Positions 23,986 through 51,643 of a stretch of DNA of 64,000 nt are shown in pieces. The notes beneath the pieces were generated by a model. That model saw only the letters and a list, made by a program, of their open reading frames with translations. It was not told the DNA's origin and did not search any database. Location: the NCBI GenBank assembly GCA_028713995.1, contig JAQTNF010000004.1:17563-81562 (forward strand). The letters run 5' to 3'. The stretch's first letter is position 1, and the number at the start of each line of letters is the position of its first letter. The DNA comes from Deltaproteobacteria bacterium. GTDB lineage: Bacteria > Myxococcota_A > Polyangia > JAAYKL01. The position numbers and the translations under genes were made by a program.

Positions 23986-24109
23986 ATGGCGCCTCACCGG
24001 TAGCCACCCGTTCGTCGCGCGAAAGAACGAAGCTAGGCGTTGCTCGCCACTGTTTTTGACGGTCCATTGACAATCCAGCGACTCGTGTTCGTTCTCAGTG
24101 TAAGACCTT

Positions 24110-32814: not shown

Positions 32815-32855
32815 GAAATGATGTTCCGGCCGAAATGCCTTCACGAGGTGTGCTG

Positions 32856-35800
32856 ATGATCCCGTCTGCTCTTACCGCCCAGCTACAGCAGGGTCTCGCC
32901 GACTTCCTGCGTTACTCGTTCTGGTCGTCGACGCCGGGCATGGAGCACGTCATCGAGGATCTCATCGACGCACCGGGTGGCGTGACGCACGGCCCGTACC
33001 TGTCGGTGAAGCTGCCGTTCGCCAGCGGATCCAAGCGGAACTTCTTCACAGACGTGCCGCTCGGCTTCACCCCTCACGCCCACCAGGAGCGCGCGTTCGA
33101 GCGCCTTGGCGGGAAGGAGAAGCGGAGCACCCTCGTCGCCACGGGCACGGGCTCGGGCAAGACCGAGTGCTTTCTGCTCCCGATCCTCCAGCACTGCGCC
33201 GAGACCGCGAACGAGCCGGGCATCAAGGCGATCCTGATCTACCCGATGAACGCGCTCGCCACGGACCAGGCCGAGCGCATCGCGCGGCTCATCTACGACA
33301 ACCCCAAGCTGCGCGGCCGGGTCACGGCCGGGCTGTACATCGGCGAGTCCAAGGGCAAGAAGCGCACGGCGGAAGAAGGGATGGGGCCGCGCCACATCGT
33401 CACCGACCGCGACGTGATGGAGAAGAGCCCGCCGCACATCCTGCTCACCAACTACAAGATGCTCGACCTCCTGATGCTCCGGCCGTGGGTGCAGGGCATC
33501 TGGCGCCACAACCGCCGCGGCGACCTTCGCTACCTCGTGGTCGATGAGCTGCACACGTTCGACGGCGCGCAGGGCACGGACCTCGCGTGCCTGATCCGGC
33601 GGCTCAAACGCCTCCTCCAGGTGGACGACGGGTCGCTTTGCTGCGTGGGTACGAGCGCCACTTTGGGCGGTGCCGGCGCTAAGAAGCAGCTCCTCGACTA
33701 CGCCGGCCAGGTGTTCGGCGAGCCGTTCGACGACGGGGCGCTCATCGGCGAGTCGCGGCTCGACGCGCCCGGGTTCCTCGCCGGCGCCGATGCGACGTTC
33801 ACCGACGAGCCGGACCTTTCCGACCTCGATGCGCTCGCGGCCGAACGATACGACGATTCCGAAACTTGGCTGCGCGAGCAGGTGCGTCTCTGGTTCGGCG
33901 GAGTCCATGAAACCGCGGACCCGGAGAGTTGGGCGGTGGAGCTCGGCGAGCGGCTCCGGTGCCATGCGGCGTTCCGTGCGCTCCTCGGACTGCTCGACGG
34001 GCACGTCGTCGGTCTCGGCGACGCGGTGCAGTCGCTCTCCCGGGCCCGCACCTCATGGCGCCAATCGCCGCACCTCGGTCGTGCTGCGCTGCTCAGCCTG
34101 CTCGGCCTCGTCTCTGCCGCCCGTCGCCGGGTCGAGGTCTCGCCCGGCGTCTTCGAGACGACCCGCTTCCTCGACGTCCGGATCCAGCTCTGGCAGCGGG
34201 AGATGGCGCGCATGGTCGCGACCGTGACGCAGCGGCCGAGGTTGCGGTTCTCCGACGACCTCGACAAGGAGCAGAAGCGGGAGCATCTGCCGCTCGCCCA
34301 ATGTCGCGATTGCGGCGCCATGGGATGGGGCACGCGGATCGACAAGAACAAGCCGCACGTCCTGCGCTGCGAGCCGAGCGCCTTCTACTCCGCCTTCTTC
34401 CGGAACGACGACCGCGTGGTGTTCCTGTATCCGGCCGCGGCCATACCGCCGGGCGACCCGGTCTGGGAAAGCCGGAGAGTCAGAAGGGTCGATAGCAAGA
34501 ACCTGGTCATCCTGCAGGACGACGAGGAGCCCGGCGGCGAGGTCGTCGAGCTCGTCGAGGTCAAGAACGTGCGACAGACCGACTCCGGGCCAGTGTTGCA
34601 CCGAGACTGTCCGTTCTGCGACGCGCGGGAGAGCCTCGCCCTGCTCGGGTTCCGCGCCGCGACGCTTACGAGCGCGTACATCGATCAGATGTTCGCGTCA
34701 CGCTTCAACGACGAGCGGGACAAGAAGGTGCTCGCGTTCTCGGACAGCGTACAGGACGCGGCGCACCGCGCCGGCTTCTTCAGCGCACGGACGTGGCACA
34801 CGAACCTCCGTGTCGGGATCTCGCGGGTTCTGTGTGACGGCCACGACGGCGCGACCCTCGCCGAGCTCTCTGATGCATTCGTGCGGTACTGGCAGAAAAA
34901 GCTCGACCCGCAGACATGGATCGCGACGTTCCTCGCGCCCAACATGAACTGGCTCCACGACTGGGATGCCCTTCAGCGCGACGGCAAGCTCCCGGTCGGC
35001 TCGGACCTGCCAGCGCTCGTGGCGAAGCGGCTCGCGTTCGAGCTCGTCAACGAGTTCGGGCTCCAGGCGACCATCGGGCGCTCGTTGCCGCGGACAAAGG
35101 CGGCGACCGCTTACATCGACCGCGAGAAGCTCGACGAGACGTGCGCGATGCTGCTCGAACCGCTGCGAAACGAGGTGCCAGGGCTCAAGGGCGCGACCCT
35201 CGCACAGGTGAGAGCGTTCGTGCTCGGAGTCCTGCACCACCTGCGCCTGCGCGGCGGGATCCTGAGCGCCGAGATCCCGGAGGAGTACCTGAAGACGGCC
35301 GGCGACAAGACGTTCATGTTCAACATCTCGCCGCACCTGCCGTCGTTCGCGAAGACGTCGCGCATGTTCGCCTTCATCACGGATCGCCCCGGCAAGCGGC
35401 GGTTCGACTCCTGGTTCGAATCCGCGTCGAAACACTCCGGGTGGTACGAACGCTGGCTCTCCCGCTGCTTCACCCACGACGCCGCGCTCGGCGCCGACGC
35501 ACCGTCCGCGTACCCACCGGCGCTCGCGGCGCTGACCGCGAAGGGGTTGCTCGCCGAAATCGAGGCCGCCAGCAAGACCCGCGTGTGGGGTATCCCGGAA
35601 TCGGCGCTATGCGTGACCCGAGACGTCGTGACCGTGCACTGCGCGAAGTGCGATCACCGCCAGGTCGTCGCCCGGGTCGAGGCGGAGGACTGGTTGAGCG
35701 CTCCTTGCGCCACGGCCCGCTGCGACGGTCGCTACGAGGTCGAGGAGCAGACGCGCCCGGACTACTTCGGCCGGTTGTACGCGCACGGCGACCTGCAGCG

Positions 35801-38800
35801 CATCTACACCGCCGAGCACACCGGGCTCCTGACGCGCGAGGAGCGGGAGCTCGTCGAGCGCCAGTTCAAGGCGGAGACCCGCGCGACCGATGGAAATGGG
35901 GAAGAGGGCGGCGCATCGATTTCGCGGCGCCCGTGGTACCCGAACCTGCTCTCGTGCACGCCGACGCTGGAGATGGGCATCGACATCGGCGACCTGTCGT
36001 CCACGGTCCTGTGCACCGTGCCGCCGACCCAGGCGAGTTACCTGCAGCGCATCGGGCGCGCTGGCCGGCGGGAAGGCAACTCGTTCGTGCTGACCGTCGC
36101 CAACGCCCGGCCGCACGACCTCTACTTCTACGCCGCGCCCGAGGAGATGATGGAGGGGGACGTTCTGCCTCCGGGCGTGTTCCTCGACGCCTCGGCCGTG
36201 CTCGAACGCCAGCTCACCGCCTTCTGCTTCGACCGCTGGGTGGCGAGCGAGGGCGACAAGGCCGTGCTCCCGGCGCACCTCAAAGACGTGCTCTCGCGCA
36301 TCGGAGATCGCGGCGGCACCCACTTCCCGCACAACCTCCTCGCCTTCATCGAACGCGAGCAGCCGACCATCCTGCGCGAGTTCGACGAGATGTTTGCCGG
36401 CCGGATCAGCCCGACGACCCGGGCGCACCTGCGCGCCTTCCTCGTCGGCGACGAGGCGAACAAGGCCGGGCTCGGGTGGCGCCTGCTCGACACGTTCGCG
36501 CGGGAGAAGAAGCAGCTCGACAGCTTCCAGGCCAAGGCGCGGCAATTGAGCGCCGAGATCAAGAAGCTCGAAGCGAGCGAGACCAAACCCCAGGACTACG
36601 AAGATCGGCTTGGCAAGCTGGAGGACGAGAAGGAGGCGCTGCAGGGGCTCATCAACGGCATCAAGGGCAGCGGCAACAGCGCGTCCGGGCATGCGCCGGG
36701 ACGCCAGACGCTCGAGTTCCTCACGGACGAAGGCCTCCTGCCCAACTACGCCTTCCCGGAGACCGCGGTGCGGCTCCGGTCGGTGATCTGGCGGCGCAAG
36801 AAGCGCGTCAGCTCCCAGGGGAGCAAGTACGACACCTGGACCTACGAGTACGCGCGGTCGCCGAGCAGCGCCCTCTCGGAGTTTGCGCCGCACGCCGATT
36901 TCTACGCCGGCGGCCGGCACGTCAAAATTGACCAGGTCGACGTGACGATGTCCGAGATCGAGACGTGGCGGTTCTGCGCCGCGTGCAACCACGCCCAGCG
37001 CGACGACATCGGCGAGAAGTCGTTCTCGTGTCCGGCGTGCGGCAGCACGGCCTGGGCGGATGACGAGCAGAAGCTTCGCCTGCTCCCGCTGAAACAGGTG
37101 TTCGCGAGCGCGCCGGATCGTGAGAGCCGCATCCGGGATGAGCGTGACGAGCGGCAGCCACGCCACTTCCTGCGGCAAATCCTCGTCGACCACCACGATG
37201 TGGACCGGGAGGCTGCGTGGTCCCTCGACGAGCCATCGTTGCCGTTCGGATTCGAGCTCCTGCGGCGGGCCACGTTCCGAGAGCTCAACTTCGGCGTGAA
37301 CATCGACCAGGGACCGAGGACCGACATCGCCGGGAAGAATGCGGCGCGGCCGGGATTCCGAATTTGCACGCGCTGCGGCAAGGTCCAGCCCGACCACAGC
37401 CCGTCGGAGCACGCACCCGCCTGCCCGACCAAAACGCGCGGCGAGAAGGAGTCGGTCGAGCCGTGCCTCTACCTGTATCGGGAGTTCAGCTCTGAGGCGT
37501 TGCGATTCCTGCTGCCGATGGCGGATGTCGGTACTCGGCTGCAGCTGAACTCGTTCCTCGCCGCGTTACAGCTCGGGTTGCGGGAGCGCTTCGGCGGCAG
37601 CGTCGAGCACATCAAGACGACCGTGTACTCGGAGCCCGACCGGGCGAGCTCACTGCGGCGGCAGTACCTCGTCCTGTTCGACAGCGTTCCCGGCGGCACC
37701 GGCTACGTGAAGCAGCTCGTGACCCCGCCTGCCGAGGGCGGCGTGCTCCCGATCCGCGAGGTGCTCGAGCTGGCGCGCAAGCGGATTGAGAGCTGCACGT
37801 GCTGGACCGATCCCGAACGCGACGGCTGCTACCGGTGCCTGCTCGCCTATAGGAACGCCAAGGAGATGGACGACACCTCCGCCCACGAGGCGGTGCAGCT
37901 CATCGGGAAGATCCTCTCCCGGTGGGACAAGCTCAAGCCGATCCCCTCCCTGGGCGACGTCTCGGTGAGCGGCTTGATGGACAGCGTGCTCGAGGCGCGG
38001 TTCATCGAGGCGCTGAAGCAGACCTCATACGGTGGACATCCGAACCGCGTGAAGCACGCGGTGTTCCGCCAGAAGCCCTGTTACCACCTGACCGTCGGCG
38101 AGCAGGAGTGGTACGTCGAGCCGCAGTGCGACGTCGACCACGCGGACAGCTTCGGCATCGTCTATCCCGTCGATTTCGTGCTGTGGCCCGCCGGGCACGC
38201 GACAGCCGAGAAGAGAGACCCGATTGCCGTTTTCCTCGACGGTTTCGAGTTTCACAAGGGGCGCGTCGGGCTCGACATGTCGCAGCGGCAGCGGATGCTG
38301 GCGTCCGGGTCGTGGGACGTGTGGAGCCTTACCTGGTTCGACCTCGACGAGGCGCTTGGGACGCGGCGGCCGGACAACAAGCCAGTGAACCTGGTCCATG
38401 CGAACCTCCAGGAGTTGCGGGATCGATTGCAGGCGTTCGGGCTGGGCGCGTATCGCGATTGGGGCGAGCGCCCAATCTTCGACCTGTTCCTCGCGGACAT
38501 CGGCGATGTCGCTCTCGTGCCCTGGAAGCAGCTGGGCGAAGGGATGCTCGCGAGCCGGATGACGCCGGCGCAGCCCGATAGCGGAACCGTCTGGGCGGCA
38601 GCTGTGAGACAGATGGCGCCGATGCCAGTTCGACCCTTGCTCGATATCGCGACGTGCAAGTTGCAGCTCGCGGACGACGGGGCTCTCAACCCCTGGGTGT
38701 CGGTCCACGCGGTGCACGACGGCCAGAACGTGAAACTTCTCGCGCAGCTCGACGACCGTCCCGATAACCGTGAGCAACCTGGGTTCCGGGAGGCGTGGAA

Positions 38801-39215
38801 CGGATACCTGCGGCTGTTCCAGCTCCTCCGACAGGTTCCGGGCGGCTGGTTCTTCACGCGCACCGGGAACGAAGAGTTCGACAGCGTGCCGCTCATCCAG
38901 CTCCGGAGTGGTCCCGCGGAAGGTGCGCCTTGGTCGACTCTCAACGTGGGGCGTGCGTTCGTGCCCCTGTGTGAGGAGCTCCAGAGCGCGGGCGTCGACA
39001 AGCCTGAGGTCGGTTTGGACATCCCGAATGCCGGAGGTGGCGTCTGGGCCGAGGGTGAGCTCGTCTGGGAGGATCGACGCATCGCGGTGACGGACAAGGC
39101 GCGCATCGGTGATGCCGTCGGCGAAGTGGCTTTGGGGTGGAAGGTGTTCGCGGTCGAGGATCTCGCGTCCATCGACCCACTGCTCGCAGCGTTGAAAACG
39201 GAAGGAGGCGCCTGA
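32856..39215 (+). CDS. Giant DEAD/DEAH-box helicase with C-terminal DUF1998 (DrmA/DrmB-like or DruE-like)
   Basis: 2119 aa; TLVATGTGSGKTECFLLPIL, YLVVDELHTFDGAQG, CVGTSATLGG, YLQRIGRAGRREGNSFVLT; DUF1998-like LVLFDSVPGGTGYVKQL...CTCWTDPERDGCYRCLLAYRNA; several CxxC pairs. Confidence 0.9.
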   Translation: MIPSALTAQLQQGLADFLRYSFWSSTPGMEHVIEDLIDAPGGVTHGPYLSVKLPFASGSKRNFFTDVPLGFTPHAHQERAFERLGGKEKRSTLVATGTGSGKTECFLLPILQHCAETANEPGIKAILIYPMNALATDQAERIARLIYDNPKLRGRVTAGLYIGESKGKKRTAEEGMGPRHIVTDRDVMEKSPPHILLTNYKMLDLLMLRPWVQGIWRHNRRGDLRYLVVDELHTFDGAQGTDLACLIRRLKRLLQVDDGSLCCVGTSATLGGAGAKKQLLDYAGQVFGEPFDDGALIGESRLDAPGFLAGADATFTDEPDLSDLDALAAERYDDSETWLREQVRLWFGGVHETADPESWAVELGERLRCHAAFRALLGLLDGHVVGLGDAVQSLSRARTSWRQSPHLGRAALLSLLGLVSAARRRVEVSPGVFETTRFLDVRIQLWQREMARMVATVTQRPRLRFSDDLDKEQKREHLPLAQCRDCGAMGWGTRIDKNKPHVLRCEPSAFYSAFFRNDDRVVFLYPAAAIPPGDPVWESRRVRRVDSKNLVILQDDEEPGGEVVELVEVKNVRQTDSGPVLHRDCPFCDARESLALLGFRAATLTSAYIDQMFASRFNDERDKKVLAFSDSVQDAAHRAGFFSARTWHTNLRVGISRVLCDGHDGATLAELSDAFVRYWQKKLDPQTWIATFLAPNMNWLHDWDALQRDGKLPVGSDLPALVAKRLAFELVNEFGLQATIGRSLPRTKAATAYIDREKLDETCAMLLEPLRNEVPGLKGATLAQVRAFVLGVLHHLRLRGGILSAEIPEEYLKTAGDKTFMFNISPHLPSFAKTSRMFAFITDRPGKRRFDSWFESASKHSGWYERWLSRCFTHDAALGADAPSAYPPALAALTAKGLLAEIEAASKTRVWGIPESALCVTRDVVTVHCAKCDHRQVVARVEAEDWLSAPCATARCDGRYEVEEQTRPDYFGRLYAHGDLQRIYTAEHTGLLTREERELVERQFKAETRATDGNGEEGGASISRRPWYPNLLSCTPTLEMGIDIGDLSSTVLCTVPPTQASYLQRIGRAGRREGNSFVLTVANARPHDLYFYAAPEEMMEGDVLPPGVFLDASAVLERQLTAFCFDRWVASEGDKAVLPAHLKDVLSRIGDRGGTHFPHNLLAFIEREQPTILREFDEMFAGRISPTTRAHLRAFLVGDEANKAGLGWRLLDTFAREKKQLDSFQAKARQLSAEIKKLEASETKPQDYEDRLGKLEDEKEALQGLINGIKGSGNSASGHAPGRQTLEFLTDEGLLPNYAFPETAVRLRSVIWRRKKRVSSQGSKYDTWTYEYARSPSSALSEFAPHADFYAGGRHVKIDQVDVTMSEIETWRFCAACNHAQRDDIGEKSFSCPACGSTAWADDEQKLRLLPLKQVFASAPDRESRIRDERDERQPRHFLRQILVDHHDVDREAAWSLDEPSLPFGFELLRRATFRELNFGVNIDQGPRTDIAGKNAARPGFRICTRCGKVQPDHSPSEHAPACPTKTRGEKESVEPCLYLYREFSSEALRFLLPMADVGTRLQLNSFLAALQLGLRERFGGSVEHIKTTVYSEPDRASSLRRQYLVLFDSVPGGTGYVKQLVTPPAEGGVLPIREVLELARKRIESCTCWTDPERDGCYRCLLAYRNAKEMDDTSAHEAVQLIGKILSRWDKLKPIPSLGDVSVSGLMDSVLEARFIEALKQTSYGGHPNRVKHAVFRQKPCYHLTVGEQEWYVEPQCDVDHADSFGIVYPVDFVLWPAGHATAEKRDPIAVFLDGFEFHKGRVGLDMSQRQRMLASGSWDVWSLTWFDLDEALGTRRPDNKPVNLVHANLQELRDRLQAFGLGAYRDWGERPIFDLFLADIGDVALVPWKQLGEGMLASRMTPAQPDSGTVWAAAVRQMAPMPVRPLLDIATCKLQLADDGALNPWVSVHAVHDGQNVKLLAQLDDRPDNREQPGFREAWNGYLRLFQLLRQVPGGWFFTRTGNEEFDSVPLIQLRSGPAEGAPWSTLNVGRAFVPLCEELQSAGVDKPEVGLDIPNAGGGVWAEGELVWEDRRIAVTDKARIGDAVGEVALGWKVFAVEDLASIDPLLAALKTEGGA

Positions 39216-41329
39216 TGCCCCCCTTGAAAGAGGCGTTCCGGGTCGCGATCTTCGACGAGTTCCTCGACGCGTTCGCGAAGATCCCGCGGGCCCAGCAGAA
39301 GAAGGTCAACAAGTTCATCCGCATGTTCCGGGAGAACCCGACGAGCGGCGCGATCAACTATGAGGGGATCTCCTCATTCAGCGACCCGAACCTCAAGACC
39401 GTGCGCATCGACCAGGCGTACCGGGCCATCGTGCTCAAGCCGGAGACCGGCAACGTGTACGTGCTCCTGTGGGTGGACAACCACGACGCGGCGATGGCGT
39501 GGGCCAAGAACAAGCGCGTCGCCATCCACCCCGAGACCGGCTCGCTGCAGGTGCTCACTGTGCACGAAGGCGAGAGGCGACCTTCGCAGCCGCCGCCGGC
39601 CGGAACCAAGGCGTTGTTCGAGAAGATCCGAGACCGCGAGCTGCTGCGGCTCGGCGTGCCGACGGAACTCCTGCCGCAGGTACGCGAGGTTCACGATCAA
39701 GAGCAGCTCGACGGGCTGGAGTCGACCCTGCCGGCCGAGGCGTATGAAGCGCTCTTCTTCCTCGCCGAGGGCGAGCCGCTCGCGGACGTCGAGGAGGCGC
39801 TCGCCGTTGCCGACGTCACGAACGTGGACGTCAACGACTTCGACGCTGCGCTCGACCGGGACGCCTCCAAGCGCCGGTTCGTGATCGTGGACAACGACGA
39901 GCTGCTCGAGTCGATGCTCGACGCGCCGATGGAGAAGTGGCGCATCTTCTTGCACCCGAACCAGCGGCAGCTCGTCAACCGGTCGTGGCCCGGACCGGTC
40001 CGCGTTCTGGGCGGCGCCGGCACCGGCAAGACCGTGGTCGCGATGCACCGGGCCGCGTACCTCGCCGAGAAGCTGTTCACGAAGATCGAGGATCGCATCC
40101 TGTTCACGACGTACACCGTGAACCTGGCGGCGGACATCGAGGCGAACCTGCGCAAGCTCATGTCTCCTGCAGCGCTGCGCCGCATCGAGGTGGTGAACCT
40201 GGATCGGTGGGTCGCCGGGCTCCTGCGACGGAGCGGATACGAGTACAAGGTGGCCTACTGGCCGACCGACAAGGGCCTCGCCGCCGCCTGGGACAAGGCG
40301 ATGACGCTCGCGAACGAGGGCGCGTTCCCGAAGAACTTCTTCCGGGACGAGTGGGAGCTCGTCGTGCAGGCGCAGGGGTGCGCGCGCTGGGAGGACTACC
40401 AGGCGTCGTCGCGCTCGGGACGCAGCGTGCGGCTCTCGCGCAAGCAGCGCCAAGAGATCTGGCCGGTGTTCGAGGAGTACCGGAACCAGCTCGAGAAGCA
40501 GGGGTTGCGGGAGCCCGAAGATGCGATTCGGGACGCGACCGCGCTGGTCAAGAGCGGCAAGGCCCAGGTGAGCTACCGCGCCATCGTCGTCGACGAGGCA
40601 CAGGACATGAGCACCAACGCCTTCACGCTGCTCCGGCAGATCATCCCCGAGGAGCGGGCCGACGACCTTTTCATCGTCGGCGACGGGCACCAGCGGATCT
40701 ACCGCCGACAGGTCGTGCTCGGGCGCGCGGGCATCAACGTCCGCGGACGGCGCGGGCGGCGACTCCGCATCAACTACCGCACCACGGAGGAGATCCGGAG
40801 GTTCGCCGTGTCACTGCTCGAGGGCGTGCATGCCGACGACCTCGACAACGGCGAGGACACCACCAAGGGCTACAAGTCGCTGATGCACGGCGAGGCACCG
40901 CACGTCGAGAGCTTCCCGACGCTCGACGCCGAGGTCGTGGCCATCGCCAAGTGGTTGAAGACCGGAAATCTCGAGCAGACGTGCCTCGTCGCGCGCACGA
41001 ACGACTGGCGGGACAAGTACGCCGCCGCCCTCGAGAAGCGCGGCATCCCGGTATACGCGCTCAAGCGCTCCGAGGCCGAGGACACCTCCAAGCCGGGGCT
41101 GCGCGTCGCGACGATGCACCGGGTCAAGGGGCTCGAGTTCTCGCGCGTCGTCATCGCCGGCGTGAACGAGGGGCTCGTCCCGTCGAAGGACGCCATCGAG
41201 AAGTCCGCCGACGAGGCGGTTCGCTCCGAGGCCGAGGATCGCGAACGTGCGCTGCTCTACGTCTCCACGACACGGGCCAAGAAGGATGTGCTGATCACCT
41301 CGTGTGGGAAGCCAAGCAAGTGGGTGTGA
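39215..41329 (+). CDS. UvrD/SF1 helicase with N-terminal RelE/ParE-like domain
   Basis: 704 aa; N-terminal FDEFLDAFAKIPRAQQKKVNKFIRMF...LKTVRIDQAYRAIVLKPETGNVYVLLWVDNHDAAMAWA, then [65 protein letters not shown]. Confidence 0.85.
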   Translation: MPPLKEAFRVAIFDEFLDAFAKIPRAQQKKVNKFIRMFRENPTSGAINYEGISSFSDPNLKTVRIDQAYRAIVLKPETGNVYVLLWVDNHDAAMAWAKNKRVAIHPETGSLQVLTVHEGERRPSQPPPAGTKALFEKIRDRELLRLGVPTELLPQVREVHDQEQLDGLESTLPAEAYEALFFLAEGEPLADVEEALAVADVTNVDVNDFDAALDRDASKRRFVIVDNDELLESMLDAPMEKWRIFLHPNQRQLVNRSWPGPVRVLGGAGTGKTVVAMHRAAYLAEKLFTKIEDRILFTTYTVNLAADIEANLRKLMSPAALRRIEVVNLDRWVAGLLRRSGYEYKVAYWPTDKGLAAAWDKAMTLANEGAFPKNFFRDEWELVVQAQGCARWEDYQASSRSGRSVRLSRKQRQEIWPVFEEYRNQLEKQGLREPEDAIRDATALVKSGKAQVSYRAIVVDEAQDMSTNAFTLLRQIIPEERADDLFIVGDGHQRIYRRQVVLGRAGINVRGRRGRRLRINYRTTEEIRRFAVSLLEGVHADDLDNGEDTTKGYKSLMHGEAPHVESFPTLDAEVVAIAKWLKTGNLEQTCLVARTNDWRDKYAAALEKRGIPVYALKRSEAEDTSKPGLRVATMHRVKGLEFSRVVIAGVNEGLVPSKDAIEKSADEAVRSEAEDRERALLYVSTTRAKKDVLITSCGKPSKWV

Positions 41330-41339
41330 CCGCAAGGAC

Positions 41340-41885
41340 ATGGAGTTGCACATGAGAACTGCAGACCTTCTGGACATTCTCCGTGCCGAACGAGTCAAGG
41401 CAATCGCTAAAGAGCTGGGCGTGTCGACGACAAGCGCAAAGAAGAGTGATCTCGTCAAACGCATCGCTTTGTCTTTGGCGCACAGGACTAACAACCGGGG
41501 CGAGCGCCTAGGCTGGGAGAACGCCATTCCGGAACTGATCGGCGCCATGACTGGAGAAGATGTCACCGATGTCTTTCGAGGCACTGAGTGGAAAGGCGAT
41601 GACTTTACCTATGAAGCTATCGCAACAAGTATCGGCCGCGTCGGCGTGGACGAACGCAGACGACTTCTTGTGGACGTGGCGCTCGCTGAGCAAGGCATCG
41701 GTGGCAAGTCCATCGACGACATCTGTGGCGACGGCAAGTACGCCAACTGCTTCACGGTGGATGACGAGGGTGATGACGAAGAAGATTGGGAGAACGACTG
41801 TACTGAGGACGACGATGACGAAGGTCGTGACACTGTACGAGTAGAATGCCCGGAGTGCTCAGGAAGTGGCAGGGATACCGCTTAA
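41340..41885 (+). CDS. Small protein with SAP-like N-terminus, Asp/Glu-rich tail and CPECSGSG motif; alternative start 41352
   Basis: RTADLLDILRAERVKAIAKELGVSTTSAKKSDLVKRIALSL (SAP-like), DDEGDDEEDWENDCTEDDDDEG, VECPECSGSGRD. Confidence 0.6.
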   Translation: MELHMRTADLLDILRAERVKAIAKELGVSTTSAKKSDLVKRIALSLAHRTNNRGERLGWENAIPELIGAMTGEDVTDVFRGTEWKGDDFTYEAIATSIGRVGVDERRRLLVDVALAEQGIGGKSIDDICGDGKYANCFTVDDEGDDEEDWENDCTEDDDDEGRDTVRVECPECSGSGRDTA

Positions 41886-41887
41886 GA

Positions 41888-43114
41888 ATGCCAACGATTA
41901 AATGCCATCTTTGCGGTGAAGAATTCAAGGCTTCGTTCTACGATTTCTGGACCTGCGGCGCTTGTGGGTTTGATTGCGGAATTCGTCTTCATGAGCACGC
42001 GCCGGACGAGATGGGAGAATTACTGGCGTTCTTCGAGAAGATTCGGGCGACTCGTTCGTTTGGTTCCTCTGGAAGCGTTCTTGCGCTTATGAAGACCCTT
42101 GAGAAGCCTGAGGACACCAAGGCGTTCAGCTCCTGCATCGATACTTTACTTCTTTTCTTTGATTCGCTTGTTGTGCCCTCGATCACGATCGAGACGTTAG
42201 CGCGTGCTCTTGGGGACAAGAAACTCGAAGTTTATCAACAGCACGGCTTGCTGAAATGTTCAGACATTAGCTTTGTGCAAGCTCAGGTCGGCGGTGTGGA
42301 CGCTTTGGGAGGGGACAAGCAAAAAGCCTTGTTCAATCTCGATTTGATTGGCGATGCCTTGCCAGTCAACGCGGAAACCCAATACGGGCATTCGCGATAC
42401 GAACTCGCGATGTCCTTGGCGAATCTTGAGCACGTGATTCTGAATGAACTGGTCGATCTCCTTAAAGAACGCAATCTCTTCAATGCACATAGAATTGGAA
42501 ACACGGAGATTGTTCGCCTCAGAGGTCGCGATTACGTCGACCGAGAACTCGCCCATTTGATTCCGTATCGGTTCTTGAGAAGTGAAGTTTTCTGTCATTT
42601 CTTCTCGTTCTCAATGCTTTACGATCAGCACTACGGCATCGCGAATGTGTTGAAGGAAACGCGCTTCGTCCGCGGATGGGCAGAAGGTGGGTCCGAATAT
42701 TCTCTTTTTCATCAATGGTTGCGCACGACCTCGTTTACACTGAAGGTTTTGGAGCCCTTACAGGTGCTTGAATTTCGGTCAAGGCACGGATCACTTACGG
42801 GCTTGGTTTCAGCGATTCAGAAGGAGGCCATAACGCGGCGGCAGAATCTTGGAGAGAGCGACCAAGCGCAGGCTTTTGGCAGGGAAATCGAAGAACGAAT
42901 TCGTCATTTTCGGAAAGTTAAGGGCAAAGGACACGAACGAAAGGCGATTTACCTGACAGGCCTTTTAAGCACCTTAGGGTCCCTTCTGAATGGGCCGCTG
43001 GGAGCGGTGATTGGTGGGATTGGCGGCACTATCGCAGCGGACTTAGCGTTGGAGTTCGACAGAAAAACCTCAGGGCCAATCGGCTTCGTGGTAGATGAGT
43101 TCCTCGCCAGTTAG
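41888..43114 (+). CDS. Zinc-ribbon protein with C-terminal glycine-zipper-like hydrophobic segment
   Basis: MPTIKCHLCGEEFKASFYDFWTCGACGFDCG; C-terminal LLSTLGSLLNGPLGAVIGGIGGTIAADLALEF; starts 2 nt after previous stop. Confidence 0.65.
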   Translation: MPTIKCHLCGEEFKASFYDFWTCGACGFDCGIRLHEHAPDEMGELLAFFEKIRATRSFGSSGSVLALMKTLEKPEDTKAFSSCIDTLLLFFDSLVVPSITIETLARALGDKKLEVYQQHGLLKCSDISFVQAQVGGVDALGGDKQKALFNLDLIGDALPVNAETQYGHSRYELAMSLANLEHVILNELVDLLKERNLFNAHRIGNTEIVRLRGRDYVDRELAHLIPYRFLRSEVFCHFFSFSMLYDQHYGIANVLKETRFVRGWAEGGSEYSLFHQWLRTTSFTLKVLEPLQVLEFRSRHGSLTGLVSAIQKEAITRRQNLGESDQAQAFGREIEERIRHFRKVKGKGHERKAIYLTGLLSTLGSLLNGPLGAVIGGIGGTIAADLALEFDRKTSGPIGFVVDEFLAS

Positions 43115-43564: not shown

Positions 43565-46500
43565 ATGGCGAGCGACATCCGGACCCTGGTCGTGAGGCGC
43601 CGCAACGCGCGAATCGTCGGGCCGCGCATCGGCTACAGCATCGAGATCCCGGACATGTCGTTCCCGGAGGTGCAGCCGCCCAGGCGCACGGGCTCCCTCG
43701 AGGACGCACTCGGCTGGAAGGTGCTGCGCAAGCTTTACGGCCGCGTCGACGTGATCGAGCCGCGCGGGCTCGTGGCGCCGAGCGCATGGGAGAGGCGCTA
43801 CCTGGCCTGGCTCTCGGCCAGGCTCGAGGTGCCGCTCGCCAAGGGCTGGGAGATCGCCGAGGAGCAGCCCAAGGACAGGCCCCACGTGGCCGACGTGCTG
43901 CGGCGCATCACCGACACCGACCCGTGGAGCCCTGCCGACCGGCTGCCGAGCAGCGTGATCGTGCGCAAGTCCGAGACGCACCGGCTCGAGGCCCGGGAGG
44001 CCGCGTTCCAGATCAGACGCTGGGTGGAGGGCAACGGCGGCGTGGAAGCATGCCGCGACGTGCTGGTGCTGCTGCCGCGTGGGCGATCCTTGCGCGACCT
44101 GTGGCTCGCGGAGTTCGCGGAAGTTGGCGTGCCGGCCGTGGGAGTGCTCACGCGGCTGCTCGGCGAAACAGCCATCGGCGGGTGGGCGCTCACGCTCTCG
44201 CGGCTCGTGGGCTGGAGCGAGGAAGCTCCCCTGTCGCGCCACACGCTTCGCGAGGCGCTCGACGCGCCGTTCTGGTCGCAGAAGGCCGCAGGCCGCGACG
44301 ACCGCCCCCTCAAGCGCGACGTGCTGCGCGAGATCATCCTCGACCTCAGGCGGCCCAGGATCACGCCCTCGGACTGGATGCGGCACCTCAACGCCGCGAA
44401 GGCCGCGGCTCGCGAGGAAGACAAGGCCGAGCGCGTGGAGCAGATCGAGGACATCGAGGCGTTCAGCCGCACGCTGCTCGCCCGCGTGACTCCCGGCGGC
44501 AACCCGATCGCTCGGTTCCAGTCACTCGTCTTCGGCAACGGCGACAAGGATGGAGAGCAGGCGTTCAACGCAAGGGCCGTGGCACGGGCGTCCAAACAGG
44601 ACGAGGCCATTGACGTGGTTGAGCGCGTCCACTCCGAGCTCGAGCGGCTGATGCGGGTCGAGCAGGCCCACGACGGCGCGCACCCGGATCTCCACGGCGA
44701 GAACGTCAAGACCCTGGCCGGCCTGCTCTCCGAAACCCTGTCCGGCTCGGCCATGGTGGAGCGCAGGAGCCCAGACCCGGGCGTCGAGCTCGTGCCCTAC
44801 GACCTCTACGACGGCCGTCCGTGCCGTCATCTCATCCTGGCCGGGCTGTCCGAGAGCGGGTTCCCCAAGGCGCCGCGCCTCCTGGCCGACCACGAGGAAC
44901 GCTGGGCGCTCGCCCTGGGTCTCCTGGGCGACGAGCCCCCGCAGGAGCAGGCCGCAAGGAGCACGCGATGGGTGGAGCTGGCGGTCTCGCGGCAGATCGA
45001 CCTGGCGCGGGTCGCGGTGAGCCGCTGTCACGGGCCCCTTACGCTCTCCTATTCCACACAAGGACAACGCGACGAGGCCGTGCACCCCGGAGGCTTGCTC
45101 TCGCTGCTGGTCGGTGGGTGGACCGAGAAGGACTGGACCAGGGTCGCTACCGACCAGCCCTACGCCGGAACCACGGGCGACTTCACCGGCGTATCGGTGC
45201 TGCGCTGGGCCCACGAGGTGCCGCTGTTGGTCGCCGACGCGCGCAGCGCGCCCAAGGCCGTGCTCGCGGCCGATTCCGACCCGGCGTTGCGCGCCGAGCT
45301 CGACACCCTGGCCAGGAACGGCACGTGCCCGGCGCTCGCCGGGCTGCTCGACAGGCTCGAGGGACCGGACGCTTGCGCCGACGCCGACGCGGAGCTCGAG
45401 TCCAAGACCGCTCGGCCTGCCGGGCCTTACACGGGGAGGTTGCCGGGACACATCGTGCCGCCCGACGGCTACAGCCCCACGTCGCTCAAGAACTACGGCC
45501 AGTGTCCCCACAAGTACTTCCTCGAGAAAGTACTCGGGCTCGAGAAGCTCGAGGAATCGTCGAGCTTCCCGAACGCCATGGAGGTGGGCACCATCCTGCA
45601 CGACGCGCTCGCTGGCGCGGCGGACAAGGCCATCGCGTCCACCAGGGCCAAGTGCTGGGACCTCTCCTGGAACGGCGACGAGGAGACCATCGACGACCTG
45701 GTCGCGGCGCGCATGGCCGAGATCGAGCCCGAGATCCGCCGCGCGCTCGGCGCGTTCCACGATGCCGCGCCCACGACATCGCGCCCCTACCTGGAGGCGC
45801 TCGGCCTCAGGTGGACCACCGCGGTGCGCAACTGGCTGCGCCATCACCTCGTGCTCGGCAACTCGGCCACGGCATCCGGGATGCGCGTGGTGGCCGCGGA
45901 GCGCGCGTTCGGCAAGGGCGATGACGCGGAGTCGATCGTCATCGACGCTCAAGGCGCGAAGATCCCCTTGCGGGGGCAGATTGATCGCATCGATTTCGAC
46001 AAGAAGAGCCGCACGATCGTTCTGCGCGACTACAAGTCGGGCGGATCCACCCCGGAAAGCGCCCTGCGCAAGGGAGCCGCCGCGGGCGAGGAGCTGCAGC
46101 TTCTCCTCTACGCCCTGGCCGTCGAGGCCCTCGTCGAGGCCAAACGACTCGACATGCCGGACGGCTCGCGGGTCATGCAGGTGAGTTACGAGTACCTGGG
46201 CAGAACCAAGAGCGCGGGTCTCGACCTGTCCGAGGACGAGCCCACCGGATATCTTCTCGACGGCGAGCCTGTCTCGTGGCGCGACATCGCCCGTGCATGG
46301 ACGGCCTTCTACGCCGATGGGATCGAGAGCGGGCGCTTCGATCTCTCTCCGCGCAAGTGCCCCACCAAGGGGTTCATGGGCGGCTACTGCGATTTCACCC
46401 GCTTCTGCCCCGTGGGCCAGGGCGAGTCACCGACTCTCGAGATCGTGGCCGGTCCCGAGATCGTGCCCGAAGAGACCAAGGAGCCCCGTGAGAAGAAACC

Positions 46501-49500
46501 GCCTGTGCTGGCCGCGTCGCTGCCTCCCGAGAGCGCGGCCATAGACGAGCCGGCCGAGAAGCTGCGCCGGGCCCACGAGCAGGGCGAGAAGCTGGTCATG
46601 GATCTGGGTAGCGAGGTGTTCATCGCGGCCGGCGCTGGCACGGGCAAGACGCACAGCCTGGTCCTGCGGTATCTCAAGGCCCTGGCCGACGAGGACCGGC
46701 TACCGACCGAGATCCTGTGCGCCACGTTCAGCCGCAAGGCCGCGGCCGAGATGCGCCACCGGGTGCGCCAGGCGCTGCTGCGGCCCGCGACAGACGCCCA
46801 CCGCAAGCTCGTGGCAAAGATACGCAAGCGACCCGACCGCTTCCGCTCCATCGTTCTCGCCCTGTCGGGCGCGCCCATCGCCACGCTCGACAGCCTGGCC
46901 GCGCGCATCGTGCACGAGGGCGAGGAGCTGCTGGGCGACCTCGAGCTGTCGACCGCGGAGGGCGTGGCCGGCGAGCAAGTCGAAGGCGAGCTCGAGGCGT
47001 TCGTCTCGCGGCGCATCATGGAAGGGCTCGAGAGCCGCGACACCGACCTCCTGGCCCTGCTCGATCTCCTGAGCGTGGTCGAGCTGACCAAGCTGCTCAC
47101 CCCGCTCGTCGCGTCCGGAACAAAGCCCTGGGCCGACGCGATCGCGAAAGGCACGCTCGAGAAGAACCTGGTCGATCAGTGGCTCGAGCCGGTCCGAGCG
47201 CTCGAGGCGCGCGTGTCCGCGTTCTTCGCCGGCCTGGATTGCAAGACCCTGGAATCCGCACTCGCCGCGACCGACGCTCCCAAGACCAAGAAGCCCGACG
47301 CGGACAAGATGGAGGCCATCGGTCTGGCCGTGGAGGCGCTCAAGCGGCTGCGCGGCCGCAAGAAGCTCGTCAGCCGCGATTTCTGGAAGGACATCGACGC
47401 GGTCAAGGGCATCCCGTTCTCGGTCGCCAAGGGGCGCGCGCCGATCTTCGCGGCCATCGAGAGCGTGTTCGGTGAGAAGCATTGGTTCAAGATGCTGGTG
47501 GGTGACTCGCAGGGGCTCGACCTCGCCAATTTCATGGTCGCCGACGACTCGCCCATGGAACGCTGGGCCAAGGCCACGGGGCTCGCCATCCGCATCGGCG
47601 GCGCGTGGCACGACGAGTTCGTGGAGGAGATCTGGGCGAGCGGCCAGCCCAGGTACCAGGACGTGACTTCGCGCGCCCGGGAGCTCCTCGCGGACAAGAG
47701 CCTTCGCGACGGGCTCAAGGCGCGCCTTCCGTTCAGGCACATCCTGGTGGACGAGTCGCAGGACACGAGCGAGGAGCAGGTGGGGCTCGTGACCGCGCTC
47801 GCGGAGGTGACCGGAGGCCGTCTCTTCTGGGTGGGCGACGTGAAGCAGTCGATCTACCGCTTCCGCAATGCCGAGGTGGACGTGTTCGAGGGCCTCATCG
47901 AAAACGTCACGGACCGCAACGCAAAGCGCGGGTCCCTGCGCATCAACTACCGCAGCCGCCGCCCCCTCATCGAGGCCGTGAACGACATCTTCTCGGCTCT
48001 CCTTCCGGCGCAGCGCGACGGGGCGCCCGTGGATCGCGGCTCCGAGGTGCGCTACGAACGGCTCACCTGGCCCGAGGGCGAGGACAAGACCAAAGCCGAG
48101 CCTCTGGTCGAGATCATCGCCGCGCCAGGCGAGGGATGGCCCGTCGATGCGCCCCCAGGAGAGACCGGCTCGGTGGAAAACGCGATCGTGCGCCGCGTCG
48201 CGGCTGTCCTGGCCGGAAGCGGCGACCGCGGAGGAGCGGACGCGCGCGTCGCGGTGCTCGTCAACTCCTGGCGCAAGGCCAGGCACTATCAGCGCCTGCT
48301 GACGTCGTCCGGAGTGCAGGCCGTGGTGCAGGGCGGCGGCGGGCTGCTCTCCACGCGCGAGGCCCACGGGCTCGTATCGTGGCTCTACGCCGCAGTGGAG
48401 CGCACGGACCTGGCCTTCGCGAGCGTGCTCAAGGGGCCTGGCTTGCGCATGTCCGATGCGGGCCTCTATGCCTTGCGAGGCGGTCTCGGGATCGCGGGAC
48501 ACGATGGGCATTCGCGGTACCTGGGTAAGGCCGCGCGTTACGACTCTCTCGACCCGGATGTGGCCGTGAAGGCCTGGAAGGCGCTCGATTCGAGCCTCGA
48601 CGTCAAGAAGGTCCGCGCCCTGCTCGACAAGGATGCTCACGTGCTCGAGCGATTCCGCCGCGTGTGGGGCGCCACGTTCGAGCACGCCGGGTTCAGGCCC
48701 GCGTCGGATCTGTTCCGCGAGGTCATCGACGAGCTCGGGCTCGAGGCGTACTGGAGCCGCCGGGAAAACGGCGGGCGCCAGGCCGTGGCCAACCTGCAGT
48801 CGTTTATGGACATGGTGCGCGAGATGGAGACGTCGCAGGGGCTCACGCCGCGCGCCCTGCTCGACGGGCTGGCTTCCACCGACGACAAGGACGAGCGAGC
48901 AGCGACCGGCCTCGATGCCGGGGCGACCGCGGACGTGATCGTGACCACGTACTGGCAAGCCAAGGGCCGCGAGTGGCCGATAGTCGTCCTTCCGGACATC
49001 GAGGACGCGAAGATCGGCAGGAATGGCTCGAGCGGGCTCTCCCCGGAGCGTATCCTCGTGCCAATGGACGACGCGCCGTTCGCGCGCAAGAGGGTCGAGT
49101 GGCACATCGGCTCCGCGCAGACCACCGACGACGACCCGCTTTCCGCGGACAGGGTGAAGGCGCTCGACGGCCCGCGCGAATTCTGGCGCGAACCGGCCGA
49201 GCGCGCCGAGCTGCGACGGCTCCTGTACGTGGCCATCACTCGCGCCAAGGACAGGCTCATCCTGTCGGGGACGTTCGCTCCGCCGAGCGAGAGCAAGGCG
49301 ACGTGCGAGCTCGAGGACGGCACGCCGGCCTGCGGGATCGGATCGGCCGGATCCTGGGCCTCGATCCTGAGCGTGTGCCTGGACATGAGGTTCGACGCCT
49401 CGGGCAAGCCGTTCATGGGAGACAGCTCCCTGTGCAAGGCGAAGCAGATCCTGCTCCTCAAGCCCGCGAACGTCGACCCCGCTGCCGAGAGCAAGGCGGC

Positions 49501-50203
49501 CCCGAAACGTAGAATCACCAAGATCGATCCTGCGCTCGCCAGGCTATGGGCCCCCCTGCCCTACGCCGTACGCGAGCGCCTGAGCCCCTCGCAGGCCGAG
49601 GCGGCAGAGCACGTTCCCGAGCCCCTGGGCCCAATCACGTGGCCCAAGGCCGAGAGCGGCCGCGCGTCGGTGTTCGGCACCATGGACCGCGAGGGCTCGG
49701 CGTTCCACGAGGTGATGGAGGCCTGGGGCTATGGCGGCCCGCAGGGCATCGCGTTCACGCGCGAGCTGGCCAGGGAGGTTCTGGAAGGGCTCGAGATGGC
49801 GGACGTGCCCGGCAAGACCGTCCGCGTGGACCGCCTGATGGAGTTGCACGCCGAGTCGAGGAAGAAGCACCCCGACCTCTTCGCGCGCCTCGAGAAGGCC
49901 GCTCGCGCCGGGAACCTCTACCCCGAGCTGCCCATCAGTTACACCGACGGGCAGGGCCGCCTCGTCGAGGGCTACGTGGACCTCGCCTGGAAGGACGACG
50001 CCGGGTGGCACATCCTCGACTACAAGGCCGGATGGCAGCACCCGCACGAGGCCGACAGACTCACCCACGAGAAGCTGAGGCAGCACTATGCCCAGACGGC
50101 GATGTACGCCGAGGGTCTCAAGACCCTGCTGCCGGGTGAGACGATCGCGGACTTCGGCGTGTGGTACGTCGCGTGCGGGTTGGTGGTGAGGTGGAGAGGC
50201 TAG
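43565..50203 (+). CDS. Predicted single-chain AddB-AddA fusion (helicase-nuclease with two PD-(D/E)XK-like domains)
   Basis: 2212 aa from MASDIRTLVV. N-half: AddB-like with TSLKNYGQCPHKYFLEKVLGL, GQIDRIDFDKKSRTIVLRDYKSGG and CPTKGFMGGYCDFTRFC (Fe-S-like). C-half: VFIAAGAGTGKTHSLVLRYL, ILVDESQDTSEEQ, FWVGDVKQSIYRFRNA, YVAITRAKDRLILSG, and VEGYVDLAWKDDAGWHILDYKAGWQ nuclease. Confidence 0.85.
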   Translation: MASDIRTLVVRRRNARIVGPRIGYSIEIPDMSFPEVQPPRRTGSLEDALGWKVLRKLYGRVDVIEPRGLVAPSAWERRYLAWLSARLEVPLAKGWEIAEEQPKDRPHVADVLRRITDTDPWSPADRLPSSVIVRKSETHRLEAREAAFQIRRWVEGNGGVEACRDVLVLLPRGRSLRDLWLAEFAEVGVPAVGVLTRLLGETAIGGWALTLSRLVGWSEEAPLSRHTLREALDAPFWSQKAAGRDDRPLKRDVLREIILDLRRPRITPSDWMRHLNAAKAAAREEDKAERVEQIEDIEAFSRTLLARVTPGGNPIARFQSLVFGNGDKDGEQAFNARAVARASKQDEAIDVVERVHSELERLMRVEQAHDGAHPDLHGENVKTLAGLLSETLSGSAMVERRSPDPGVELVPYDLYDGRPCRHLILAGLSESGFPKAPRLLADHEERWALALGLLGDEPPQEQAARSTRWVELAVSRQIDLARVAVSRCHGPLTLSYSTQGQRDEAVHPGGLLSLLVGGWTEKDWTRVATDQPYAGTTGDFTGVSVLRWAHEVPLLVADARSAPKAVLAADSDPALRAELDTLARNGTCPALAGLLDRLEGPDACADADAELESKTARPAGPYTGRLPGHIVPPDGYSPTSLKNYGQCPHKYFLEKVLGLEKLEESSSFPNAMEVGTILHDALAGAADKAIASTRAKCWDLSWNGDEETIDDLVAARMAEIEPEIRRALGAFHDAAPTTSRPYLEALGLRWTTAVRNWLRHHLVLGNSATASGMRVVAAERAFGKGDDAESIVIDAQGAKIPLRGQIDRIDFDKKSRTIVLRDYKSGGSTPESALRKGAAAGEELQLLLYALAVEALVEAKRLDMPDGSRVMQVSYEYLGRTKSAGLDLSEDEPTGYLLDGEPVSWRDIARAWTAFYADGIESGRFDLSPRKCPTKGFMGGYCDFTRFCPVGQGESPTLEIVAGPEIVPEETKEPREKKPPVLAASLPPESAAIDEPAEKLRRAHEQGEKLVMDLGSEVFIAAGAGTGKTHSLVLRYLKALADEDRLPTEILCATFSRKAAAEMRHRVRQALLRPATDAHRKLVAKIRKRPDRFRSIVLALSGAPIATLDSLAARIVHEGEELLGDLELSTAEGVAGEQVEGELEAFVSRRIMEGLESRDTDLLALLDLLSVVELTKLLTPLVASGTKPWADAIAKGTLEKNLVDQWLEPVRALEARVSAFFAGLDCKTLESALAATDAPKTKKPDADKMEAIGLAVEALKRLRGRKKLVSRDFWKDIDAVKGIPFSVAKGRAPIFAAIESVFGEKHWFKMLVGDSQGLDLANFMVADDSPMERWAKATGLAIRIGGAWHDEFVEEIWASGQPRYQDVTSRARELLADKSLRDGLKARLPFRHILVDESQDTSEEQVGLVTALAEVTGGRLFWVGDVKQSIYRFRNAEVDVFEGLIENVTDRNAKRGSLRINYRSRRPLIEAVNDIFSALLPAQRDGAPVDRGSEVRYERLTWPEGEDKTKAEPLVEIIAAPGEGWPVDAPPGETGSVENAIVRRVAAVLAGSGDRGGADARVAVLVNSWRKARHYQRLLTSSGVQAVVQGGGGLLSTREAHGLVSWLYAAVERTDLAFASVLKGPGLRMSDAGLYALRGGLGIAGHDGHSRYLGKAARYDSLDPDVAVKAWKALDSSLDVKKVRALLDKDAHVLERFRRVWGATFEHAGFRPASDLFREVIDELGLEAYWSRRENGGRQAVANLQSFMDMVREMETSQGLTPRALLDGLASTDDKDERAATGLDAGATADVIVTTYWQAKGREWPIVVLPDIEDAKIGRNGSSGLSPERILVPMDDAPFARKRVEWHIGSAQTTDDDPLSADRVKALDGPREFWREPAERAELRRLLYVAITRAKDRLILSGTFAPPSESKATCELEDGTPACGIGSAGSWASILSVCLDMRFDASGKPFMGDSSLCKAKQILLLKPANVDPAAESKAAPKRRITKIDPALARLWAPLPYAVRERLSPSQAEAAEHVPEPLGPITWPKAESGRASVFGTMDREGSAFHEVMEAWGYGGPQGIAFTRELAREVLEGLEMADVPGKTVRVDRLMELHAESRKKHPDLFARLEKAARAGNLYPELPISYTDGQGRLVEGYVDLAWKDDAGWHILDYKAGWQHPHEADRLTHEKLRQHYAQTAMYAEGLKTLLPGETIADFGVWYVACGLVVRWRG

Positions 50204-50229: not shown

Positions 50230-51141
50230 ATGGGGAAGGATGAAATGACGTGGTCGGTGTTCGACAGGCTGACGGAACTTGCCCGTGAAAAAGTGTGGCA
50301 CATCACTACGGAGAGAGCAGAGCTCCTCGGTCCCTGGGACGTCGCGCTGCAAGATCTCGGCGGAGACCCCTGCAGACGCGATTGGTCCAAGTTCAGACCA
50401 TTGCGGCTTTCGCGGGAGGAAGACTGGTCCGACTGGCTGGCGCACCTTCTTGAAAGCTCCGCAACGGACCGTTTCGCACGCGCTCTGTTCGGCGCGACCT
50501 TTGGAGAGCGCGAAGACCTCTCTCGCCCGGACGTCAGCCGGGAAGAGAAGACGACAGACGGCACCCGGAGAGGCGACATCGTCATCACCTGGAAGAGCGG
50601 AGCCTGCGCCCACGTCGAGGTCAAGGTCGGGGACAAGGCGTTCGCCAAGACCGGCGAGACCGGCGAGAAGCTGCGAGAGAATCACCCCACGGCCACCAGG
50701 TGGGAGAACTTCCTCCTCATCCCGGCCACGTCCCTGCGGGAATGGCTCGAGCTCGTGGCAGGCTCCGACGCGGAGAACGACGAGGATGAGGAAGCCGCTG
50801 GCGATGACCGAAACGACGACGAGGATGGCGAGAGCGAACCGCCCGAGGACATGATCGCGGACGGCCGGCGGGAGGAACCCGCGGCGAGCGATGCGCGGAT
50901 TTCGGAGGTCCTCTGGGAAAACGTCGCCGTCGCGTTGAGAAGGGCTCTTCGAGCGCCAGGAGAGGACCTCGCGTGGAGAGCCTGGGCATACACTTTTTCT
51001 GGCGCCATCGAGCAGAGAATCCTCATGCACCCGGTCCACAGGGACGACGAGATGAACAGGACGGCGCTGTTGCTGACTCGTTGTTCCGCACTGCAACGGC
51101 AGAACGACGTGCTGAGAAAGGGGCTTCACGATGCTGATTGA
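50230..51141 (+). CDS. Hypothetical PD-(D/E)XK-like nuclease-family protein
   Basis: DWSDWLAHLLESS...RRGDIVITWKSGACAHVEVKVGDKAFAKTGETGEKL (D...EVK core); acidic linker DAENDEDEEAAGDDRNDDEDGE. Confidence 0.6.
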   Translation: MGKDEMTWSVFDRLTELAREKVWHITTERAELLGPWDVALQDLGGDPCRRDWSKFRPLRLSREEDWSDWLAHLLESSATDRFARALFGATFGEREDLSRPDVSREEKTTDGTRRGDIVITWKSGACAHVEVKVGDKAFAKTGETGEKLRENHPTATRWENFLLIPATSLREWLELVAGSDAENDEDEEAAGDDRNDDEDGESEPPEDMIADGRREEPAASDARISEVLWENVAVALRRALRAPGEDLAWRAWAYTFSGAIEQRILMHPVHRDDEMNRTALLLTRCSALQRQNDVLRKGLHDAD

Positions 51142-51643
51142 AAACGATCCGTTCCTGCAGGAAGGAATCTCGCGATACGCCGATGCGAAGGCCACTCTCC
51201 GTCACTTCGAGCAGGAGATGACGGATCGGCTAATCGAAGTCATCCAGAAGAAGAACGATTGGACGACCTACCGAAAAGAGCGAGGCAAGCAGGCGGTCGT
51301 TTCTGGATCGCTTCGGAAGCGAACCGAGTCGGCAAAGCCCAGAATCACGGTGCATGTGTCGGGCCATGTGGTCGTGAACAACAAGAAAACAAAGGCGAAG
51401 ATCGTGGTCGCCCTGCAGTGGGAGCCCAATTTCGCGGACAAACCGTTCATCGTGTTCGCTAGATTCTTCAAGTGTCCCGACTATCTGCAGCGTTTCGACG
51501 CTCCTCAAGAGTCTTCTCGAGGAGTCCGCTCGTACAAGGCGAATGAGAAGAAGACTCACCTTTACGTCGTTCCCGATGAGAACATGGATCTGAGAAAGGT
51601 TGTGAACCTGCTGCTCGACGAACTCCAACTGTACGTTCAGTAG
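51131..51643 (+). CDS. Hypothetical protein coupled to upstream nuclease-like gene
   Basis: 170 aa; MLIENDPFLQEGISRYADAKATLRHFEQEM...; overlaps upstream stop by 11 nt. Confidence 0.6.
   Translation: MLIENDPFLQEGISRYADAKATLRHFEQEMTDRLIEVIQKKNDWTTYRKERGKQAVVSGSLRKRTESAKPRITVHVSGHVVVNNKKTKAKIVVALQWEPNFADKPFIVFARFFKCPDYLQRFDAPQESSRGVRSYKANEKKTHLYVVPDENMDLRKVVNLLLDELQLYVQ

What the first reader, a model, noticed from the sequence alone, without database searches (positions are those of the whole stretch)
43565..50203. Natural AddB-AddA fusion: one polypeptide with helicase-dead and helicase halves and two nuclease domains
A single uninterrupted 2212-aa ORF contains an AddB-like half (two-part PD-(D/E)XK nuclease with four-Cys Fe-S-like pattern) followed by a complete AddA-like half (Walker A/B, SF1 motifs, C-terminal nuclease). 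AddA and AddB are normally separate subunits, so fusion fixes stoichiometry. Location inside a defence island suggests either the host recombination machine or a repurposed defence nuclease.
Basis: partly seen in the sequence, partly recalled or inferred. Interest (0 to 1): 0.75.

Follow-up and report, generated by a model that had tools for sequence, protein, structure and literature searches.

The report
Fused AddB-AddA DNA-end nuclease, Chi-scanner lost
A bacterium carries, besides its ordinary two-part DNA-break repair enzyme, a second version in which both parts are one giant protein, apparently stripped of the part that tells the enzyme to stop cutting, and sitting among anti-virus genes, so it is probably a DNA shredder used against invaders.

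Summary
Window 43565-50203 (+) is one open frame of 2212 aa: an AddB-like half (Fe-S-type four-Cys PD-(D/E)XK nuclease) followed by a complete AddA-like half (SF1 motor plus second nuclease). It is not an assembly artefact. The same continuous frame (2269-2413 aa, 30-40% identity for those aligned) occurs in four other genomes of the phylum, with both sets of nuclease residues kept. Trees of both halves put the fusions in one 100%-supported clade, apart from all separate AddA/AddB/RecB sampled. It is an accessory gene: this genome also has ordinary separate AddA and AddB, and three other carriers have RecB and RecC. New here: (1) the AddB half aligns to AddB only from about residue 308, so the 1A/1B part, which holds Chi-contact and latch residues in B. 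subtilis AddB, appears to be missing; (2) two carriers have a PDDEXK_4 nuclease directly 3' of the fusion on the same strand, and the window has a two-gene pair there whose first gene shows a PD-(D/E)XK-like motif. Best explanation: a single-chain, Chi-blind, DNA-end-dependent helicase/dual nuclease that degrades foreign DNA. Defence function is inferred, not shown. Novelty: new variant of a known kind.

The parts
43565..50203 (+). AddB-AddA fusion gene, 2212 aa
   Evidence: translation, Pfam, four further continuous homologues
43565..43933 (+). N-terminal ~123 aa in place of AddB domains 1A/1B; no Walker A seen
   Evidence: profile-profile alignment starts at residue ~124 = AddB profile column 348; weak hmmsearch stretch places it at B. 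subtilis AddB residue 308; low model confidence
43934..45124 (+). AddB helicase-like remainder (2A/2B-like), residues ~124-520
   Evidence: hhalign 98.4% prob, E 6e-15, with the nuclease part cut off; Foldseek top hit 3u44_B
45473..46411 (+). AddB-type PD-(D/E)XK nuclease with four-Cys (Fe-S-type) pattern: H679, E779, D807, D822-Y-K824, Q845; C647, C932, C942, C948
   Evidence: Pfam PDDEXK_1; residues kept in relatives and most of them shared with ordinary AddB
46412..46579 (+). poorly conserved inter-half linker, residues ~950-1005
   Evidence: alignment A1
46586..49267 (+). AddA-type SF1A helicase motor; Walker A GAGTGKT 46628-46651, DExx box VDESQDT 47747-47767
   Evidence: Pfam UvrD-helicase/UvrD_C; hhalign to AddA 100%, E 4e-111; motifs
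49700..50110 (+). AddA/RecB-type second nuclease: H2048, D2139, D2152-Y-K2154, Q2177
   Evidence: PDDEXK_1 match; residues kept in all five complete fusions
50230..51141 (+). Directly downstream 303-aa protein with a PD-(D/E)XK-like motif (D-[IL]-VITW-x-SGA-xx-H-[VI]-EVK); paralogue on contig C32
   Evidence: sequence; paralogue 39-49% identical; no Pfam match, single-sequence model uninformative, so the nuclease assignment is by motif only
51131..51643 (+). 170-aa protein whose start overlaps the previous gene; the C32 paralogue of the 303-aa gene is followed by a 24%-identical copy

Best explanation
The gene encodes a single-chain AddBA: one SF1A motor (AddA half) and two PD-(D/E)XK nucleases, one per strand, joined by a linker. 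It loads on free double-stranded DNA ends, unwinds and cuts both strands. Because the AddB 1A/1B part appears to be missing, it should not recognise Chi and so should not switch from destroying to resecting. It is an accessory enzyme beside the cell's own AddAB or RecBC, and most likely degrades invading linear DNA (phage, or fragments left by restriction and other defence systems), possibly with the nuclease-like protein encoded directly downstream. Shown: fusion, its conservation, coexistence with an ordinary enzyme, intact motifs, one clade for each half. Well supported but remote: absence of 1A/1B. Inferred: Chi-blindness, DNA degradation, defence, joint action with the downstream genes.
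For: Continuous frame in five genomes; catalytic residues of both nucleases and the motor kept, except a diverged motif IV in G112 and G090. N-half matches AddB (hhalign 100%, E 7e-42) only from profile column 348 of 1135; hmmsearch against the PDB finds 3u44_B as the only significant chain and aligns fusion position 124 to AddB residue 308 (that stretch itself is weak); Foldseek top five are the AddB chains. In B. subtilis AddB the Chi-binding mutants are F68A and F210A, and the latch partner E129 is in domain 1B, all before residue 308 (PMC4824097). Coexists with AddAB (G000) or RecB plus RecC (G008, G101, G112). One clade per half, 100* SH-aLRT, with matching inner branching. Scattered: 7 of 284 genomes by the N-half search. 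Defence-type neighbours in the window, G090 and G307. PDDEXK_4 is in 3 of 24 genomes searched, once each, and in two of these directly 3' of the fusion.
Against: G101 sits between metal-ATPase and housekeeping-type genes and has no nuclease gene 3' of it; G008's upstream neighbours look ordinary too. The neighbouring DrmD/DruE-type genes are not conserved beside the other fusions. The downstream pair also exists alone on contig C32. Absence of 1A/1B rests on remote alignments; the first ~140 residues are modelled with low confidence and Foldseek TM-scores are low (0.38). No activity data.
Confidence: 0.55

Rival explanations
1. A spare enzyme against phage anti-nuclease proteins: it does the destructive work of AddAB/RecBCD when a phage inhibitor (Gam-like) disables the ordinary enzyme, being different enough to escape it.
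For: Coexistence with the ordinary enzyme and deep divergence (stem ~1 change per site). Precedent: Gabija, also a UvrD-helicase/nuclease system, is proposed to act on phages that antagonise host RecBCD (PMC12407980, abstract).
Against: No inhibitor was tested; it predicts nothing about the lost 1A/1B part or the downstream nuclease gene. Overlaps with the best explanation.
Confidence: 0.2
2. An accessory repair or recombination enzyme with a housekeeping role, for example for replication-fork or plasmid ends, not defence.
For: All catalytic parts intact; G101 and G008 lie partly among ordinary genes.
Against: Rare, scattered presence (7 of 284); ordinary AddAB/RecBC present in all four carriers tested; at least three loci have defence-type neighbours.
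Confidence: 0.15
3. It is a subunit of the multi-gene DrmD/DrmMI/DruE/UvrD-like cluster just upstream (24426-41329).
For: Same strand, only gene P0007 and a 450-bp gap between them.
Against: None of the other fusion loci carries homologues of these genes beside it, beyond generic helicase or methylase matches.
Confidence: 0.08

Closest known systems
AddAB (B. subtilis type; PDB 3u44/4cej)
   Same: Same catalytic parts in the operon order addB-addA: Fe-S-type AddB nuclease, SF1A AddA motor, AddA nuclease; closest solved folds.
   Different: One polypeptide; the AddB 1A/1B part (Chi contacts, latch partner) appears absent; coexists with an ordinary AddAB/RecBC; separate clade for both halves.
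RecBCD
   Same: RecB- and RecC-like halves, destruction/resection chemistry expected.
   Different: No RecD; the RecC-like half keeps a four-Cys nuclease, unlike RecC; not Chi-equipped as far as seen.
AdnAB (mycobacterial)
   Same: Two helicase-nuclease-derived modules; structural hits.
   Different: AdnAB is two subunits with whole helicase folds; here one chain and one reduced fold.
Gabija (GajA/GajB)
   Same: UvrD-type helicase plus nuclease in defence; best PADLOC match of the motor.
   Different: GajB matches only the generic UvrD core; no GajA (TOPRIM) partner; AddAB architecture instead.

Membership tests
AddAB helicase-nuclease | AddA: SF1 motifs plus C-terminal PD-(D/E)XK nuclease | tested here: met
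AddAB helicase-nuclease | AddB nuclease with four cysteines (one N-terminal, three C-terminal) | tested here: met
   C647, C932, C942, C948 invariant; Fe-S binding itself not testable
AddAB helicase-nuclease | AddB helicase-like module with domains 1A/1B carrying the Chi contacts | tested here: not met
   alignment begins at AddB ~308 / column 348; remote alignment, so strong but not final
AddAB helicase-nuclease | Two separate subunits | tested here: not met
   single frame
AddAB helicase-nuclease | NCBIfam AddA/AddB equivalog cut-offs | tested here: not met
   TIGR02784 160 of 860.75 bits; TIGR02773 41.7 of 903.7
AddAB helicase-nuclease | Chi-regulated end resection | not testable with these tools
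   needs biochemistry
RecBCD | RecC family domain and RecD partner | tested here: not met
   the RecC family PF04257 does not hit the fusion in any carrier; no RecD match above cut-off; RecD genes were not searched for in the genomes
Gabija | GajA OLD-type partner beside a GajB helicase | tested here: not met
   no such neighbour among the genes scanned; GajB matches cover only the UvrD core

The most novel reading that the evidence does not exclude
A hitherto undescribed anti-invader system: a single-chain AddAB that has discarded its Chi scanner to become an unswitchable double-strand DNA shredder, working with a small PD-(D/E)XK protein encoded directly downstream, in cells that keep an ordinary enzyme for repair.
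Probability: 0.35. Interest if true: 0.8.

Novelty: new variant of a known kind. Interest (0 to 1): 0.66.

Why it matters
AddAB/RecBCD serve both repair and destruction of foreign DNA, and Chi is what separates the two. A natural enzyme with both nucleases and the motor but apparently no Chi scanner, kept beside an ordinary enzyme, would show the two roles split by evolution. It is also a single-chain AddAB, useful for structure and single-molecule work. How a cell survives a Chi-blind enzyme becomes a testable question.

Tried and rejected
Assembly artefact or chance frame: rejected (conserved continuous frames). Host's only recombination enzyme: rejected for this genome. Member of the upstream DrmD/DruE cluster: disfavoured. 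Phage or plasmid gene: only short UvrD-core matches in plasmids and phages, none over the whole protein, no viral contig. First genome-contig scan found nothing; the second saturated on generic AddA motifs and returned ordinary AddA loci, used as references; among ORFs of 300+ aa at those loci none was fused; two apparent fusions, L080 and L083, were cross-matches between nuclease domains. Homology of the window's downstream pair to PDDEXK_4: hhalign not significant, so only the motif and position are claimed. Single-sequence model of the 303-aa protein was uninformative. Larger genome-search runs failed twice. Paper searches found no report of a natural AddB-AddA fusion; the library is partial.

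Full report
Observation. Window 43565-50203 (+) is one uninterrupted 2212-aa frame with an ATG behind a clear Shine-Dalgarno. Pfam finds PDDEXK_1 at 637-949, UvrD_N and UvrD_C from 1008 to 1901, and a second, weaker PDDEXK stretch near the C-terminus. NCBIfam AddA and AddB models match their halves far below their cut-offs, so this is a divergent relative and not a standard AddA or AddB.

Not an artefact. Searches of the same phylum found the same continuous frame in G008, G101, G112 and G090, and contig-end fragments in G278, G247 and G307. G278's fragment, though cut, also runs across the AddB-AddA junction. The four first-aligned sequences share 30-40% identity with the window protein. Both nuclease sites, the four cysteines and the helicase motifs are kept in the five complete ones, except that motif IV has diverged in G112 and G090. 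The linker between the halves is poorly conserved.

What the halves are. The C-half aligns with ordinary AddA over its whole length (hhalign 100%, E 4e-111). The N-half aligns with ordinary AddB (100%, E 7e-42), but only from AddB profile column 348 of 1135; with the nuclease cut away the match still holds (98.4%, E 6e-15). Against the PDB, the N-half profile's only significant hit is B. subtilis AddB, 3u44_B, and a weak stretch of that hit puts fusion position 124 at AddB residue 308. A model built with 49 ordinary AddBs (mean pLDDT 67.5, first ~140 residues poor) has the five AddB chains as its top Foldseek hits, then AdnA and RecC, with low TM-scores of about 0.38. In B. subtilis AddB, Chi-binding mutants are F68A and F210A, and the latch salt bridge uses E129 of domain 1B (PMC4824097). 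These positions all lie before residue 308. The fusion has only ~123 residues there. The inference is that domains 1A/1B, and with them the Chi scanner, are gone. This is well supported but rests on remote alignment.

An accessory enzyme. The window's genome has ordinary, adjacent addA and addB on contig C78. G008, G101 and G112 each have a RecB match and a RecC match. So in all four carriers examined the fusion is an extra. Trees of each half put the fusions in one 100%-supported clade on a long stem, away from own AddA/AddB, RecB and every reference, with matching inner branching (G112+G090 against the rest) in both halves. This fits one old fusion event followed by joint descent. By the N-half search 7 of 284 genomes of the phylum carry it; G008 was not in that sample.

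Surroundings. In the window the fusion follows a cluster of DrmD-like, DrmMI/type IIG-like, DruE-like and UvrD genes, and a JetC (Wadjet-type) homologue lies upstream. G090 has a PLD-SNF2 helicase, an Eco57I-type methylase and a NERD-UvrD gene nearby, and G307 has type III Mod- and Res-like genes. G101 and G008 have mostly ordinary neighbours. The upstream DrmD/DruE cluster is not conserved with the fusion.

A downstream partner. In G008 and G090 the next gene 3' on the same strand is a PDDEXK_4 protein. PDDEXK_4 occurs in 3 of 24 genomes searched, once each, and two of those three places are directly behind the fusion. I did not compute a probability, but with thousands of genes per genome this is unlikely to be chance. 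In the window the same position holds a 303-aa gene with a PD-(D/E)XK-like motif, overlapping a 170-aa gene. The pair has a paralogous copy on contig C32 without a fusion found beside it. Its kinship to PDDEXK_4 could not be shown, and its single-sequence model is uninformative. G101 has no such gene, and G112's neighbour is unassigned.

How it probably works. Established knowledge of AddAB: one SF1A motor, two nucleases each cutting one strand, and Chi binding that attenuates cutting of the 3' strand (PMC4824097). A single chain with the motor and both nucleases but no Chi scanner should remain destructive. Beside an ordinary enzyme and often among defence-type genes, degradation of invading linear DNA is the likeliest use, at about 0.55. 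A spare enzyme against phage inhibitors (0.2) and a repair role (0.15) remain open.

Novelty. Works like AddAB; not a member in the strict sense, since two defining features (two subunits, AddB 1A/1B) were tested and not met. No report of a natural AddB-AddA fusion was found in the held papers, which are incomplete. New variant of a known kind.

Noticed in passing
window 24426-41329 (+): Cluster of DrmD-like SNF2 helicase, DrmMI/type IIG-like methylase, a 253-aa protein with a cysteine/histidine-rich start, a 2126-aa DruE-like helicase with MrfA Zn domain, and a UvrD helicase: looks like a hybrid of DISARM and Druantia parts.
   Followed up: partly
window 16667-23997 (-): JetC homologue at 18052-21966 with neighbours of a size that fits a Wadjet operon; the neighbours were not assigned.
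   Followed up: partly
L153:10382-11654 (contig C32): Paralogous copy of the 303-aa/170-aa gene pair without a fusion, downstream of a 622-aa gene; the pair may be a module of its own.
   Followed up: partly
window 41846-43114 (+): 422-aa protein of no known family (weak DUF456 match) just upstream of the fusion; no homologue at the other fusion loci.
   Followed up: partly
L021:3027-4037: Just upstream of the G112 fusion, and overlapping its open frame, lies a frame with a partial UvrD stretch, possibly a remnant of another helicase.
   Followed up: no
window 39137-41329: The UvrD gene of the cluster has ~270 residues before its helicase domain with no Pfam assignment.
   Followed up: no
L001/L155 (contig C103) and L006/L009 (contig C45): Further stand-alone PDDEXK_1 genes (273-aa and 237-aa frames) in the same genome.
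   Followed up: no
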